In this document: positions 40,836 to 45,892 of the stretch, in pieces
How positions within the stretch are numbered: the first letter of the stretch is position 1
How the letters are laid out: every line of letters begins with the position of its first letter
Assembly (NCBI RefSeq): GCF_014647155.1
Contig: NZ_BMOQ01000004.1
Location: 186,001-250,000 of the forward strand
DNA length: 64,000 nt
Source: Halarchaeum nitratireducens
Lineage (GTDB): Archaea; Halobacteriota; Halobacteria; Halobacteriales; Halobacteriaceae
Direction: 5' to 3'
Notes under the pieces: model-generated
The model's input: the letters and a program-made list of their open reading frames with translations, nothing else
Told to the model about the DNA's origin: nothing
The model's database searches: none
Made by a program: the position numbers and the translations under genes

Positions 40836-41579
40836 ATGGACGTACTCGTCGTCGGCGCGGGCGAGATGGGCCGCTGGTTCGCGGCCGCCGTCACGCCCGA
40901 CGTCGCGTTCGCGGACGCGGACCCCGCGCGCGCCGAGGCCGCGGCGGACGCGCTCGGTCCGCGGGGGCGCGCCGTCCCCCTCGACACGACCGATTCGTTC
41001 GGTATCGTCTGTCTCGCCGTGCCGATGCGGGTGGCGAGCGAGGCGATCGCCGACCACGCCGGGAAAGCCCAGCAGGCCGTCGTGGACGTCACGGGGTCGA
41101 TGCGCGCGCCGCTCGACGCGATGGCGGCCGCGGCGCCCGCGCGCGAACGCGTGAGCTTCCACCCCCTCTTCGGCGGCGACGCCGCGCCCGGGACGGTCGC
41201 CGTCTCGACCGCCGCCGGCGGCCCCGCGACCGACGGGATCAGACGCGACATCGAGGCCGCGGGCAACGACCTCGTCGACGTCACCCCCGAGGTACACGAC
41301 GACGCGATGCGGACCGTCCAGGGCCGGACGCACGCCGCGATCCTCGCGTTCGCGCTCGCCGCCGCCGACGCCGACGACGACGTGCCGGACGAACTGCGGA
41401 CGCCGGTGTACGAGCGCCTCGCCGCGCTCGCCGAGCGCGTCCTCAACGGGACGCCCCGCGTCTACGCCGACATCCAAGCGACCTTCGACGGCGCCCGCGA
41501 CGTCGCCGCGGCCGCCGAGCGCCTCGCCGACACCGACCCCGACGAGTACGACGCCCTCTACGACGATGCCCGTAAATAA
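40836..41579 (+). CDS. tyrA: Prephenate/arogenate dehydrogenase family protein
   Basis: A 247-residue short TyrA. The NAD-binding site is VLVVGAGEMGRWFA at the N-terminus, followed by VCLAVPMRVASEAI near 60. The catalytic His region is ERVSFHPLFGGDAAPGTVAV near 100, and DDAMRTVQGRTHAAILAF near 150 is the prephenate-binding helix. It oxidatively decarboxylates prephenate (or arogenate) for tyrosine synthesis. The end overlaps the Rsm22-like gene start by 14 bp. Confidence 0.88.
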   Translation: MDVLVVGAGEMGRWFAAAVTPDVAFADADPARAEAAADALGPRGRAVPLDTTDSFGIVCLAVPMRVASEAIADHAGKAQQAVVDVTGSMRAPLDAMAAAAPARERVSFHPLFGGDAAPGTVAVSTAAGGPATDGIRRDIEAAGNDLVDVTPEVHDDAMRTVQGRTHAAILAFALAAADADDDVPDELRTPVYERLAALAERVLNGTPRVYADIQATFDGARDVAAAAERLADTDPDEYDALYDDARK

Positions 41580-42972
41580 GGACGAACTCCGATCGAACGC
41601 GAAGTACCTCCGGGGCGTCCGACCGATCGACCCCGAGGAGATCTGTGACTACCTCAGCACGCCGCGTCACCCCGCGGTCGTCCGACGGGCCCTCCGCGAG
41701 GAGGCCGCGTCGCTCGGGCTCGTCGAACGCGAGGACGGCACGTTCGTCCCGGTCGAGACCGGCCCGGCCCGCGTCGAGCGCGAGTCCGTCACGGCGCTTC
41801 CCGACGAGCACGCGCGCGTGCTGGAGGACCGCCTCGTCGAGACCTACGGCCCGGACTGGCACCGCGGCGAGAGCGGCGATGCCCTCCGCGAGGCGATCCG
41901 CCGCCTGAAGGCCGATTACTACTACGAGAACGCCGTCACCTACGACGCGACGGCGGCGCTCGGCTACGCGATCTATCACCTCCCCGATTACTACGCGGTC
42001 GGTCGGTACGTCGCCGCGGACCTCGCCGCTGACGGTCTCCTGCCGCGCGACGCGCGCGTCCTCGACCTCGGCGCGGGCGTCGGTGGACCGTTCCTCGGCC
42101 TCGCGGACGCCCTCCCGGACGACGGTCTCCTCGACTACCACGCCGTCGAGCCGAGCCCCGCCGCCGACCTCCTCACGGACTACTTCGACGCCGCGGATCC
42201 GAACGTCCGCGGGACGCTCCACCCCGAGACCGTCGAATCACTCGATCGCGGCGCGCTCACCGACGAGGGCGACTTCGACCTCGTCACGGCGTTCAGCCTC
42301 CTCAGCGAACTCGACGATCCCGTCGCGGTCGTCGAGTCCTACCTCGACGTGCTCGCGGACGACGGCACGCTCGTCCTCGTCGCGCCCGCGGACCGCAACA
42401 CGAGCATCGGCCTCCGGGACGTCGAGCGCGACCTCGAAGCGCGCGGCGTCACCGTCTACGCGCCGACCGTCCGCCTCTGGGACGGCGAACGCCCGACGGA
42501 CCGCGGCTGGTCGTTCGTCGAGAAGCCCGACGTCGAGGCCCCGGGCTTCCAGCGGCGCCTCGCCGAGGCGTCCGAGCGCCCCGCCGAGTTCCTGAACGAG
42601 ACGGTGAAGTACAGCTACAGCTTCCTGCGGACCGACGGCCGGCGGAACCACGACGTCTCGCTCCCCTCCTCGCGGTACGCGAAACTCGGCGACGCCGATC
42701 GACACGTCTCGAACCGCGTCGACCTCGTCGCCGCCAAGCTCTCCGGCGACCTCTCAGAGGGCGGCAATCCCCTGTTCAAGATCAGCGACGGGAGCGAGGA
42801 CACGGACTGCTACGCCGTCCTCGTCGACCGGAGCGCGCTCAACCGCGACCTCCTCGGTGCCGACTACGGGGACCTCCTCTCCTTCGAGTCCGTCCTCTGC
42901 CTCTGGAACGACGACGAGGGCGCGTACAACTTCGTCGTCGACGACGAGGTCGTCGTCGATCGCCTCGGCTGA
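41566..42972 (+). CDS. Rsm22-like methyltransferase family protein
   Basis: A 468-residue protein similar to mitochondrial ribosomal small subunit Rsm22/METTL17. An N-terminal helical region is followed by a Rossmann SAM site (RVLDLGAGVGGPFLGLADAL near residue 164, HAVEPSP near 190), FDLVTAFSLLSELDD near 236, and a C-terminal beta-rich domain (SYSFLRTDGRR, then SNRVDLVAAKLSGDL). Cysteines for the Rsm22 Fe-S cluster are not obvious. It overlaps tyrA, so the pair is likely co-transcribed. Confidence 0.82.
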   Translation: MPVNKDELRSNAKYLRGVRPIDPEEICDYLSTPRHPAVVRRALREEAASLGLVEREDGTFVPVETGPARVERESVTALPDEHARVLEDRLVETYGPDWHRGESGDALREAIRRLKADYYYENAVTYDATAALGYAIYHLPDYYAVGRYVAADLAADGLLPRDARVLDLGAGVGGPFLGLADALPDDGLLDYHAVEPSPAADLLTDYFDAADPNVRGTLHPETVESLDRGALTDEGDFDLVTAFSLLSELDDPVAVVESYLDVLADDGTLVLVAPADRNTSIGLRDVERDLEARGVTVYAPTVRLWDGERPTDRGWSFVEKPDVEAPGFQRRLAEASERPAEFLNETVKYSYSFLRTDGRRNHDVSLPSSRYAKLGDADRHVSNRVDLVAAKLSGDLSEGGNPLFKISDGSEDTDCYAVLVDRSALNRDLLGADYGDLLSFESVLCLWNDDEGAYNFVVDDEVVVDRLG

Positions 42973-43180
42973 GACCGAACCGCTTTCTCCATTCGGCTCA
43001 TCGTCATTCCGCTCGGTGGCTCTACCTATCCGTATCTACCGGCCTCACGTCGACATGAGGTGGATCCGACGTCGAATACGGAACGCGAATCAGAACTGAC
43101 GGCCCGGATATTCTCGCAATATCTAGCCGAGTAGGTGCTTCAGACGAGGAATATGCTATCTGGTTCGTCCTATACGAGAC

Positions 43181-43186
43181 TTTATG
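43181..43186 (+). promoter_or_regulatory. TATA box of the accessory cassette
   Basis: TTTATG lies 24-29 bp before ATG 43210. The 237 bp between the Rsm22-like stop and this ATG are distinctly AT-richer than surrounding DNA and contain no gene. The position fits a leaderless transcript and decides the start of the first cassette gene against the in-frame ATG at 43135. Confidence 0.55.
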
Positions 43187-43209
43187 TGGGTTGCTTTCGT
43201 GTTACGCTT

Positions 43210-43971
43210 ATGGATACTTCTCTCCCACGGCGGGCGAACCCGGAAATAGTGTACGAGATCTGCCGCGAGATGAAGGGTGCCGACGAATTCACCCGGAACG
43301 AGGTATACGAGGAGGTGTCGGGAAAGACGCGTGACCTCCGGCGTGGGCTCACGCTCGCCCGTCGCCTCGGGTTCTTGCGGGCGGTCGATAGCGGTACCGA
43401 CGACGTGTTCCGACTCACCACACGGGGGACCGGGCTCGGCTATCAGTCGTCCTACGAGGGCAATGGGACCGTCGAGGAACTGTTCCGTGAGGCGATAGAG
43501 GAGTTCCGACCATACCGGGAGATTCTCGTTCGGGCCCACGAAGGGAACGCGACGTCCGAAGTGATGGGGGACACTTGTGTCACGCAGAGCGCGTTTCGGG
43601 AGGCCGCGGGCTCCGTAATCGACGACGAGGTGAAAGACCGGGAGGTGAACCTCCTGATAAAGACCGCTCAGGCGGCGGGTCTCGGCGAGTACCGCACGGG
43701 AAAGCGGGGGTACGAGACACGCCTCATACTCTCGGACGACTACGCGCCCTTCGTTGAGTCCCTCAGCCGAGAACACCCGTCGCCGACAGCGGCCACAGAT
43801 CGGACGACCGATTCGGAACGGGAGACGGCGGCTGAGACGGAAGGTGCGGCGTCCGGGGACTCATCGGATTCGTCCGACGTGACCATCTCCGTCGAACTCG
43901 ACGTCGGCGACCGCACGAGCGAGGAGATCGCCGCAATCGTCGACGAAATCCGTCACGTGACGGACGAGTAA
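43210..43971 (+). CDS. Two-winged-helix protein of unknown function
   Basis: A 253-residue protein that I do not recognise. Residues about 10-75 look like a winged helix (ANPEIVYEICREMKGADEFT, then LARRLGFLRAVDSGTDDVFRLTT). Residues about 95-185 form a second helical unit ending in a wing (EVNLLIKTAQAAGLGEYRTG). A Ser/Glu-rich linker then leads to a C-terminal amphipathic module, DVTISVELDVGDRTSEEI. This plan, tandem winged helices with a tail of alternating hydrophobic residues, occurs in some defence-associated regulators. Base composition is lower in GC than neighbours. The next gene starts 1 bp after its stop. Confidence 0.7.
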   Translation: MDTSLPRRANPEIVYEICREMKGADEFTRNEVYEEVSGKTRDLRRGLTLARRLGFLRAVDSGTDDVFRLTTRGTGLGYQSSYEGNGTVEELFREAIEEFRPYREILVRAHEGNATSEVMGDTCVTQSAFREAAGSVIDDEVKDREVNLLIKTAQAAGLGEYRTGKRGYETRLILSDDYAPFVESLSREHPSPTAATDRTTDSERETAAETEGAASGDSSDSSDVTISVELDVGDRTSEEIAAIVDEIRHVTDE

Positions 43972-43972
43972 C

Positions 43973-44464
43973 GTGCCGGGGAACGACGTCAACGAGGAAC
44001 TCTCGCGCCTCGTTGCGCGGCGGGTGGCCGGCCTGTCGATGGTCCGCGGCGTACGGACGTTCCCGCCGGCGAAACCCGACAGAGTCGTCGCACGTCTGGA
44101 GCGCGAACACTACCCGCCGGTCGTCGAGGACGTCACGGTCGACTTCCGGTTCGCGCGAGCGGACGAGTTCAACGTCGTGTACGTGGAACACTGGTCCGGC
44201 GAAACGTGGTCGTGTCGGTGGGACCGTCACGAGAACCCACATAGCGACCGTGATCACTTCCACCCGCCACCGGACCCGAACAACGCGTCCCGAGACGCGC
44301 TCGCCGCCGTCTATCCCGATGGCCAGAGCGCGGTTGTCGGCGTCGTCTTCGACGCACTCCGTGAACGCTACACTGCGCTCTGGGAGAACCCCGACGAACC
44401 GACCTATCCATCCGAATACGGGTTCGATCCCGGCGACGGCGACTGGCCGTTCCTCGGCGACTGA
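43973..44464 (+). CDS. His-rich RWDRH/HFHPPP protein, TumE-like toxin candidate
   Basis: A 163-residue protein started by GTG 43973, one base after the preceding stop. Its core is a strand YVEHWSGETWSCRWDRHEN followed by SDRDHFHPPPD: a dense cluster of Arg, Asp, His and Pro. I know this motif from a haloarchaeal family found next to winged-helix genes. The order RWD-x-H...H...RDHFH resembles the TumE (DUF6516) toxin motif RYDN-x-H...H, suggesting a distant relationship; this is inference. The fold may be a small beta sheet with a metal or RNA site. The C-terminus is acidic (DPGDGDWPFLGD). Confidence 0.65.
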   Translation: MPGNDVNEELSRLVARRVAGLSMVRGVRTFPPAKPDRVVARLEREHYPPVVEDVTVDFRFARADEFNVVYVEHWSGETWSCRWDRHENPHSDRDHFHPPPDPNNASRDALAAVYPDGQSAVVGVVFDALRERYTALWENPDEPTYPSEYGFDPGDGDWPFLGD

Positions 44465-44486
44465 CGCGATCGGCCAAGACCACTCA

Positions 44487-44492
44487 TATATA
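44487..44492 (+). promoter_or_regulatory. TATA box of the DUF7342-type gene
   Basis: TATATA lies about 45-50 bp upstream of ATG 44537 and 18 bp upstream of ATG 44510. The expected start of transcription (about 44515) is after 44510, which favours ATG 44537 with a leader of about 20 nt. The regulator therefore can be expressed independently of the upstream pair. Confidence 0.5.
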
Positions 44493-44536
44493 CGCCCATC
44501 CGCAGATTAATGTACGTGTACGCCCGAGAGGGTAGC

Positions 44537-45079
44537 ATGACCGACGGGAGTGCCCCTCCGACCGACTTCTCCTTGACCGACGAGTGGGAGGACGTCGAGG
44601 CGAACCGGACCGTCCGCGAGCGGGTCTACGAGGTTGCCACCACGCTCACCGAACCGACCGCAGTCGGTGACGTCGCGGAGCGCGCCGACTGTGGGAAGGA
44701 GGGTGCGCGGACGCACCTCGAATGGCTCGTCGACCTCGGTGTGCTCGAAAAGGTCGCCGACAATCCCGCGCTCTTCACTCGACACGAACCGTACTTTGAG
44801 TTCCGCCGAGTGACCGAGCTCGCCCGTGACGCCGGCTCGGCAGATGCGCTCGACGAACGGTTGGACGCCTACCGCGAGCGCGCCGACTCCCTCTCTGAGC
44901 ACTTCGACGCCGCGACCCCGGACGCGGTCGTGCTCGACGACGTTCCGGACGCGGAGTTCGAGGACGCCGCGGACAAACTCGGCGAGTGGCGGACCGTCGA
45001 GCGTCGCCTCCGCGAGGTCCGGCTGGCGAAGCTCCGCTTCGAGGGCGGTCGCGGGGCGTCGTCGAGCGTCGGCCCCTGA
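44537..45079 (+). CDS. Winged-helix regulator, DUF7342 type
   Basis: A 180-residue protein. It begins with the family hallmark DFSLTDEWEDVEANRTVRERVYE and has a winged helix in residues about 30-90 (VGDVAERADCGKEGARTHLEWLVDLGVLEKV). It continues with a long helical region (EFRRVTELARDAGSADALDERL) that could dimerise. Haloarchaeal proteins of this type, which I remember as DUF7342, are often neighbours of small toxin-like genes, as here. GC content rises again toward its end. It may regulate or neutralise the upstream His-rich protein. Confidence 0.75.
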   Translation: MTDGSAPPTDFSLTDEWEDVEANRTVRERVYEVATTLTEPTAVGDVAERADCGKEGARTHLEWLVDLGVLEKVADNPALFTRHEPYFEFRRVTELARDAGSADALDERLDAYRERADSLSEHFDAATPDAVVLDDVPDAEFEDAADKLGEWRTVERRLREVRLAKLRFEGGRGASSSVGP

Positions 45080-45127
45080 TGCGGTCCGAATAGCAACATC
45101 GAAGGGACGCCTCCCCGACCGCCCGGT

Positions 45128-45892
45128 ATGAAGATCGTTCTGACGAACGACGACGGGATCGAGAGCCCCGGGCTCGCCGCGCTCTACGAGTCCCTTTCGG
45201 CCGTCGGCGACGTCACCGCGGTCGCGCCCGCCGAGGACATGAGCGCGACCGGCCGCGCACTCTCCCGCGAGGTCGTCGTCGACGGGCACGAGTACGGCTA
45301 CGCGGTCCGCGGGACGCCCTCGGACTGCGTCGTCGCGGCGCTGGAGGCGCTCGTCCCCGACGCGGACCTTGTCGTCTCCGGGTGCAATCGCGGGGGCAAC
45401 CTCGGCATGTACGTCCTCGGCCGGTCGGGCACCGTGAGCGCGGCCGTCGAGTCGGCGTTCTTCGACGTCCCCGCGATCTCGGTGTCGCTCGCGCTGACGA
45501 GCGCGGACTTCGAGTCCGGCGAGACACCGAAAGCGGACTACGCCGAGGCCGCGGCCGTCACGCGCTACCTCGTCGAGCACACGCTCGACTCCGGCGTCTT
45601 CGAGCGCGCGGACTACCTCAACGTGAACGCCCCCCGTCCGGGGACCGAAACGGGCGACATCGCGGTGACGCGGCCGACGCACGGCTACGAGATGCACGTC
45701 GAGCGCGCGGGCGAGCGCCTCCGGCTCCACGACGAGATGTGGGAGCGGATCGACCGGGGGATCGTCGCGAACGAACCCGACGACAGCGACCTCCGGGCGG
45801 TCGTCGAGGGGGAGACGAGCGTCTCGCCGCTCACGGCCCCGCACACGACCGAGCACCACGAGATCCTCGATCACCTCGCCGCGGACTACTGA
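45128..45892 (+). CDS. surE: 5'/3'-nucleotidase SurE
   Basis: A 254-residue survival protein E phosphatase acting on nucleoside monophosphates and related phosphates. The N-terminus has the metal-binding LTNDDGIESPGLAAL. VAPAEDMSATGRALS follows, then VVSGCNRGGNLGMYVLGRSGTVSAAVE, the haloarchaeal version of the SGxNxGxN motif. DYLNVNAPRP is near residue 161. The last 7 bp overlap the convergent arsenate reductase-like gene. Confidence 0.93.
   Translation: MKIVLTNDDGIESPGLAALYESLSAVGDVTAVAPAEDMSATGRALSREVVVDGHEYGYAVRGTPSDCVVAALEALVPDADLVVSGCNRGGNLGMYVLGRSGTVSAAVESAFFDVPAISVSLALTSADFESGETPKADYAEAAAVTRYLVEHTLDSGVFERADYLNVNAPRPGTETGDIAVTRPTHGYEMHVERAGERLRLHDEMWERIDRGIVANEPDDSDLRAVVEGETSVSPLTAPHTTEHHEILDHLAADY

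What the first reader, a model, noticed from the sequence alone, without database searches (positions are those of the whole stretch)
43000..45090. Lower-GC three-gene cassette: two winged-helix proteins around a His-rich toxin-like protein
This is the best candidate in the window for an undescribed system. Base composition departs from both flanks, the upstream 237 bp are non-coding, gene 1 and gene 2 are one base apart, and gene 3 has its own TATA box. Gene 2 has a dense RWDRH...RDHFHPPPD motif that recalls TumE toxins; gene 3 is of a family frequently found beside such genes. Gene 1 has tandem winged helices and a beta-tail typical of defence-linked regulators. The layout suggests a toxin with two possible antidote or sensor proteins.
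Basis: partly seen in the sequence, partly recalled or inferred. Interest (0 to 1): 0.75.

Follow-up and report, generated by a model that had tools for sequence, protein, structure and literature searches.

The report
Rearranged haloarchaeal toxin–antitoxin-like gene cassette
A small block of three foreign-looking genes in a salt-loving archaeon probably holds a growth-stopping toxin and its antidote, a pair that recurs across many salt-loving archaea without being recognised, plus an extra gene of a family seen beside defence genes.

Summary
Three genes (43210-43971, 43973-44464, 44537-45079) fill 2,155 bp between a methyltransferase gene and surE, the most G+C-poor stretch of its length in the window. 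Two other species of the genus have 41 and 70 bp there, so it is an insertion.

Gene 2 is TumE-like. 10 of 32 family members match Pfam TumE (one over the cut-off), but the window protein does not. They share an R-[WY]-D...H...HxH motif, and the model (pLDDT 90) has the two helices and seven strands reported for TumE. Gene 3 is DUF7342. A gene-3 relative lies directly upstream of the gene-2 relative in 53 of 58 distinct loci, and the two diverge in step (Mantel r 0.90, 29 loci). Gene-2 relatives occur in 285 of 391 haloarchaeal genomes. Genes 2+3 are most likely a toxin-antitoxin module.

Only in two Halarchaeum species is the order reversed, with gene 1 in front. Gene 1 has tandem winged helices; relatives are fused to or sit beside OLD, HerA, restriction-nuclease-like and Ymh proteins. 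Its role here is inferred. Toxicity and neutralisation are untested.

The parts
42973..43209 (+). 237-bp A+T-richer non-coding leader; TTTATG TATA-like box about 25-30 bp before gene 1, kept in H. rubridurum
   Evidence: sequence; 52% G+C; alignment with L004
43210..43971 (+). gene 1: 253-aa tandem winged-helix protein with disordered linker (194-223) and C-terminal helix; no Pfam, NCBIfam or PHROG family, weak PADLOC hit only
   Evidence: no family; model pLDDT 84.5, pTM 0.72; FokI and other winged-helix proteins; 24 of 391 genomes; dN/dS 0.13
43973..44464 (+). gene 2: 163-aa TumE-like putative toxin, GTG start one base after the gene 1 stop
44216..44275 (+). conserved R-W-D-R-H...H...HFHPPPD motif, residues 82-101 of gene 2, candidate active site
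   Evidence: R82, W83, D84, H86, H90 invariant in 32 sequences
44465..44536 (+). gene 2 - gene 3 spacer with TATA-like CATATATA near 44486; last ~45 bp identical in H. rubridurum; candidate separate promoter/operator of gene 3
44537..45079 (+). gene 3: 180-aa DUF7342 winged-helix protein, putative antitoxin of gene 2
   Evidence: (PF24033 E 2.1e-24, 86.7 bits against cut-off 31.6)
41566..42972 (+). left flank: methyltransferase-domain gene; its stop codon is the left edge of the insertion
45128..45892 (+). right flank: surE; its start is the right edge of the insertion

Best explanation
The cassette is a horizontally acquired type II-like toxin-antitoxin module inserted between a methyltransferase gene and surE before two Halarchaeum species split. 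Gene 2 is a TumE-like toxin, probably an RNase that stops translation using the conserved Arg/Asp/His cluster. Gene 3 (DUF7342 winged helix) is its antitoxin: it binds gene 2 and represses its own promoter. Relative to the usual order (antitoxin then toxin), the pair is inverted in order, gene 3 appears to have its own promoter, and the toxin is placed one base behind gene 1, so toxin synthesis is tied to gene 1. Gene 1, a tandem winged-helix protein, most likely acts as a third component: a DNA-binding regulator or sensor that sets when the toxin is made. Shown: insertion, gene order, recurrent pairing and co-divergence of genes 2 and 3, remote TumE resemblance, purifying selection. Inferred: toxicity, RNase activity, neutralisation, promoter use, and everything about how gene 1 works.
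For: Insertion: empty site in 2 other genomes of the genus, lowest G+C in the window. Pairing: 53 of 58 distinct gene-2 loci have the gene-3 relative directly upstream on the same strand, 2 have it downstream (both Halarchaeum), 3 have none at threshold: L006 at a contig end, L008 beside a run of N, L119 (correcting a script error for L033). Mantel r 0.904, p 0.0001 for 29 loci. TumE resemblance: 10 of 32 members match PF20126, best E 5.4e-5 and 23.5 bits against a cut-off of 23.4; a relative on a Halarchaeum plasmid matches at E 0.0014; three gene-2 family loci (L003, L091, L092) were found by the TumE model in whole genomes at E 0.002-0.0033; shared motif; 2 helices and 7 strands in the model, as reported for TumE (passages of PMC10584680). 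Distribution like a mobile TA: 285 of 391 genomes, up to 8 matches per genome among those listed, 111 plasmid records. The highest-scoring DUF7342 genes also stand before a remote gene-2 relative: 7 of 8 loci at profile E 1.8e-5 to 0.052 in a small ORF set. Constraint on all three genes.
Against: No activity has been measured. The window protein has no Pfam, NCBIfam, PADLOC or PHROG hit. Only 1 of 32 members passes the TumE cut-off, and marginally. hhalign between the family and canonical haloarchaeal TumE gives 5% probability (P 0.0077). With a canonical TumE profile, 6 of 32 family members reach 5 bits against 4 of 640 shuffles, but the best shuffle (7.9) equals the best real score (8.0). 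Five DUF7342-partner proteins have no TumE hit. No solved structure resembles the model convincingly, and no superposition on a TumE model was made. The trio is one event in two species, so gene 1's tie to the pair could be chance.
Confidence: 0.65

Rival explanations
1. Genes 2+3 are the toxin-antitoxin pair and gene 1 is only a passenger or an unrelated regulator that happened to be inserted in front; it contributes at most a promoter.
For: Gene 1 is absent next to gene 2 in the 56 other distinct gene-2 loci examined, and gene-2 relatives are far commoner (285 of 391) than gene-1 relatives (24 of 391). Gene 3 may have its own promoter. Several gene-1 relatives (for example L168, L170) have no obvious partner.
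Against: One-base spacing to the toxin, conservation in both species and dN/dS 0.13. The two closest relatives outside the genus overlap a downstream gene by 4 nt (L166, L167), so the family tends to have a downstream partner.
Confidence: 0.25
2. Gene 1 and gene 2 form a sensor-effector defence unit, with gene 3 as the safety antitoxin.
For: Gene-1 relatives are fused to an OLD-type AAA/TOPRIM protein (L172: PADLOC Old E 6.9e-30; Pfam OLD-like TOPRIM just under its cut-off), fused to Hypoth_Ymh and next to a GHKL ATPase (L178), next to a HerA-type ATPase (L174; L175, L176, L177 and L180 by my reading of the sequence), and overlapping an HSDR_N nuclease gene (L167).
Against: No PADLOC system is called for genes 1-3 (best gene-1 hit E 0.009). 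Most of these partners belong to distant gene-1 relatives (19-24% identity in A3). No virus data.
Confidence: 0.25
3. The pair is not toxic: DUF7342 is a transcription factor and gene 2 its ligand-binding or co-regulatory partner.
For: No toxicity data; remote TumE similarity only; the pair is very widespread in the class.
Against: Patchy multi-copy and plasmid distribution, conserved polar R/D/H cluster, TumE-like fold elements, partner layout as in experimentally shown TumE-TumA pairs.
Confidence: 0.15

Closest known systems
TumE-TumA toxin-antitoxin superfamily (PF20126/DUF6516; PMC10584680)
   Same: Two-gene layout with a DNA-binding-type partner mostly upstream, seven-stranded sheet plus two helices, R-[YW]-D...H...HxH motif, weak Pfam hits in 10 of 32 members.
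   Different: The window protein is under the Pfam cut-off and longer (163 aa against about 90-115 aa for most canonical haloarchaeal members); the partner is DUF7342; in the window the order is toxin first, with an extra gene in front.
Canonical haloarchaeal TumE with a downstream winged-helix partner (L071-L100)
   Same: Same class of organisms; both kinds are present in the window's own genome.
   Different: Toxin first and a different HTH protein behind it in most of the loci checked (the family name HVO_A0114-like is recalled, not from a call).
DUF7342 (PF24033)
   Same: Gene 3 is a member (86.7 bits against 31.6).
   Different: DUF7342 has no assigned function; here it is proposed as antitoxin.
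paaR2-paaA2-parE2, a TA operon with a third regulator gene (PMC8630535, abstract seen)
   Same: A separate DNA-binding regulator gene in front of a TA pair.
   Different: Unrelated proteins; regulator function of gene 1 not shown; order there is regulator, antitoxin, toxin.

Membership tests
TumE toxin (PF20126) | window protein over the Pfam cut-off | tested here: not met
   no hit for gene 2; so it is called TumE-like, not a TumE member
TumE toxin (PF20126) | family relatives recognised by the model | tested here: inconclusive
   10 of 32 members at E <= 1, one at 23.5 bits against 23.4
TumE toxin (PF20126) | two helices packed on a seven-stranded antiparallel sheet | tested here: inconclusive
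   element count agrees (against passages); topology was not superposed
TumE toxin (PF20126) | profile-level homology to canonical members | tested here: inconclusive
   hhalign P 0.0077, probability 5%; small excess over shuffles
TumE-TumA module | conserved two-gene arrangement, partner mostly upstream | tested here: met
   53 of 58 loci; in the window itself the partner is downstream
TumE-TumA module | toxic alone, translation inhibited, neutralised by partner | not testable with these tools
   needs expression experiments
DUF7342 (PF24033) | gathering score | tested here: met
   gene 3 86.7 bits, cut-off 31.6
Known anti-phage defence systems (PADLOC) | model match of genes 1-3 | tested here: not met
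   best E 0.009 (CARF3) for gene 1, 0.0026 (JetB) for gene 3, none for gene 2
TA module with third regulator (PaaR type) | third gene regulates the TA operon | not tested
   position fits; no expression data

The most novel reading that the evidence does not exclude
Gene 1 belongs to a haloarchaeal family of tandem winged-helix sensors of foreign or modified DNA that plugs into interchangeable effectors (restriction-type nucleases, OLD nucleases, Ymh proteins), and here it has captured the toxin of a TumE-like/DUF7342 pair, giving a three-part abortive-infection unit in which the original antitoxin is kept as a separately expressed brake.
Probability: 0.25. Interest if true: 0.65.

Novelty: new variant of a known kind. 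Interest (0 to 1): 0.45.

Why it matters
If right, a protein family present in about three quarters of the sampled haloarchaeal genomes, and named 'hypothetical protein' in the 20 plasmid records listed, is a toxin. DUF7342, found at E <= 1e-3 in all 391 sampled genomes and over its cut-off in 352, would be its antitoxin family. That gives a function to two unassigned archaeal families and a testable example of a TA pair rebuilt around a third, defence-linked gene. In the papers searched I saw only one that describes TumE as a toxin-antitoxin, and none naming DUF7342; the supplements of that paper could not be read, so its haloarchaeal members are unknown to me.

Tried and rejected
Solved structures: phmmer of gene 2, no hit; Foldseek of gene 2, best E 0.54; VIA-align best Z 6.5 to frataxin, which the tool's own note treats as common; BFVD best E 0.083. 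None is used as evidence.

Virus carriage: one scan of viral contigs with the gene-2 alignment used a single peptide pattern and confirmed no relative; this is weak evidence of absence.

Gene 1 as a DUF5343-type protein was an idea from memory. No DUF5343 hit appeared among 16 relatives, so it was dropped. RraA-like (E 0.087) is below cut-off and ignored. Five of 16 relatives hit AAA_assoc_C, not the window protein.

Bacterial promoter and terminator scan: no promoter-like site and 2 terminator-like sites against 0.9 expected, not informative for an archaeon. Short repeats at the cassette ends: no clear duplication or inverted ends. tRNAs: three, none near the cassette.

My own gene caller is crude; its output was cut, and gene neighbourhoods of gene-1 relatives rest on it. 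I fetched 15 gene-1 regions out of 22 outside the trio. I had Pfam and PADLOC scan 10 proteins each, so HerA in L175-L177 and L180, the OLD-like fusions in L054 and L056, and the nuclease-like look of the L166 partner are my reading.

Mantel test: seven loci were left out (L003, L007, L010, L012, L015, L025, L032) as duplicates or near-duplicates, truncated or very divergent. Rows dropped from alignment A1 include L008 (run of N).

Full report
What is there. Three genes on the + strand lie between a methyltransferase-domain gene (41566-42972) and surE (45128-45892): gene 1 43210-43971, gene 2 43973-44464 (GTG start) and gene 3 44537-45079. The 2,155 bp from the methyltransferase stop to surE are 64.3% G+C against 70.9% (sd 2.5) in 1151 other windows of that length in the 64 kb, none lower. 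Third-position G+C is 0.78, 0.81 and 0.85 in genes 1-3 and above 0.92 in both flanking genes.

It is an insertion. The genus search held four genomes. In two of them (G632, G237) the methyltransferase and surE genes are neighbours, 41 and 70 bp apart. In the fourth, G222, the cassette is present; its contig has the same length as the Halarchaeum rubridurum contig of L004 and I take it to be that species. Between the window and H. rubridurum, dN/dS is 0.134, 0.197 and 0.049 for genes 1, 2 and 3, against 0.173 and 0.129 for the flanking genes, so all three are under purifying selection. Gene 3 has unusually low dS (0.10, others 0.21-0.41), which suggests recombination or extra constraint there.

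Gene 2. It has no match in Pfam, NCBIfam, PADLOC or PHROGs. Relatives occur in 285 of 391 sampled Halobacteria genomes and 78 of 86 genera, and on 111 of 72,556 plasmid records; the 20 records listed all show 'hypothetical protein' under the match. In a phylum sample of 294 genomes, 43 had a match and all 43 were in the window's own order. Among 32 family members, Pfam TumE was matched by 10, best E 5.4e-5, one over the cut-off by 0.1 bit; every other Pfam family matched one or two members. M1, Y70, R82, W83, D84, H86 and H90 are invariant. Canonical haloarchaeal TumE proteins show R-Y-D-N...H...HxH at the equivalent place. The AlphaFold model (pLDDT 90.2, pTM 0.86) has two helices and seven strands; the TumE paper (passages read) describes two helices packed on a seven-stranded antiparallel sheet.

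Limits of the TumE link. Direct profile comparison is weak: hhalign P 0.0077 with 5% probability. A canonical TumE profile gives 5 bits or more to 6 of 32 members, 0 of 32 reversed, 4 of 640 shuffled and 1 of 152 other genes, and the best shuffle scores as high as the best member. The reciprocal test gives 2 of 22 against 3 of 660 shuffles. I therefore call gene 2 TumE-like and do not file it as a member of PF20126.

Gene 3 and the pairing. Gene 3 is DUF7342 (E 2.1e-24). I took the gene-2 loci held after (L001-L038, L101-L130; the best hits, capped at 30 per search), removed identical proteins, and found 58 distinct loci. 53 have a gene-3 relative directly upstream on the same strand, 2 have it downstream, and 3 have none at E 0.001. 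The two reversed cases are the window and H. rubridurum. The three without are at a contig end (L006), beside a run of N (L008), or lack it (L119). A Halarchaeum plasmid carries the usual order with touching genes (L184). Distances in gene 2 and gene 3 correlate over 29 loci (Mantel r 0.904, p 0.0001); shared descent along the species tree contributes to this. DUF7342 itself is found in 391 of 391 genomes at E 1e-3 and over its cut-off in 352. For the eight highest-scoring DUF7342 loci, 7 have a remote gene-2 relative directly behind at profile E 1.8e-5 to 0.052 in a small ORF set, though five of these had no TumE hit in Pfam. Canonical haloarchaeal TumE genes have another arrangement: toxin first and a different winged-helix partner behind it.

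Gene 1. The model (pLDDT 84.5) shows two winged-helix units, a disordered linker and a C-terminal helix; Foldseek's best hits are FokI and other winged-helix proteins. Relatives occur in 24 of 391 genomes; the weakest, L062, reads as a glycosyltransferase. None of the 22 loci outside the trio has gene 2 within 1.5 kb. In L176 a gene-3/gene-2 pair lies about 0.85 kb away on the opposite strand. Neighbours are suggestive: an HSDR_N nuclease overlapping by 4 nt (L167), a 191-aa protein overlapping by 4 nt that looks nuclease-like to my eye (L166), a fused OLD-type protein (L172), a fused Hypoth_Ymh domain beside a GHKL ATPase (L178), HerA beside it (L174), and a CDC48_N fragment (L169).

How it most likely works. 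Gene 2 is the toxin, perhaps an RNase acting through the Arg/Asp/His cluster; the TumE paper shows that bacterial TumE toxins stop growth and protein synthesis, are neutralised by their partners, and that RNase activity is still unproven. Gene 3 neutralises it and represses its own promoter. In Halarchaeum the toxin has been moved behind gene 1, so gene 1 or its promoter controls when it is made, while gene 3 keeps a promoter of its own. The recurrent pair is shown by comparative data; toxicity, neutralisation and the role of gene 1 are inferred.

Verdict. It is a new variant of a known kind: a TumE-like module with a DUF7342 partner, widespread in haloarchaea and rearranged here with a third gene. 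Whether the trio works as one defence unit is open.

Noticed in passing
L063-L069 (DUF7342 loci): The highest-scoring DUF7342 genes have a ~145-aa protein of no Pfam family directly behind them that is a remote relative of gene 2, so DUF7342 may be a general antitoxin family.
   Followed up: partly
L172:4281-7304; L178:2917-5555; L174:4818-7616: Gene-1-type tandem winged-helix domains fused to an OLD-type ATPase/TOPRIM protein, fused to Hypoth_Ymh beside a GHKL ATPase, and beside HerA: possible undescribed haloarchaeal defence loci.
   Followed up: partly
window 44537-45079: Gene 3 has dS 0.10 to H. rubridurum against 0.21-0.41 in neighbouring genes, and the ~45 bp before it are identical: recombination or unusual constraint.
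   Followed up: no
L071-L100: Canonical haloarchaeal TumE genes come first with a different winged-helix partner behind, opposite to the gene-2 family; in L089 toxin and partner appear fused.
   Followed up: partly
L176:3250-4335: A gene-3/gene-2-like pair sits about 0.85 kb from a gene-1/HerA locus, on the other strand.
   Followed up: no
L169:4468-4983: A stand-alone CDC48 N-terminal domain protein (171 aa) directly behind a gene-1 relative.
   Followed up: no
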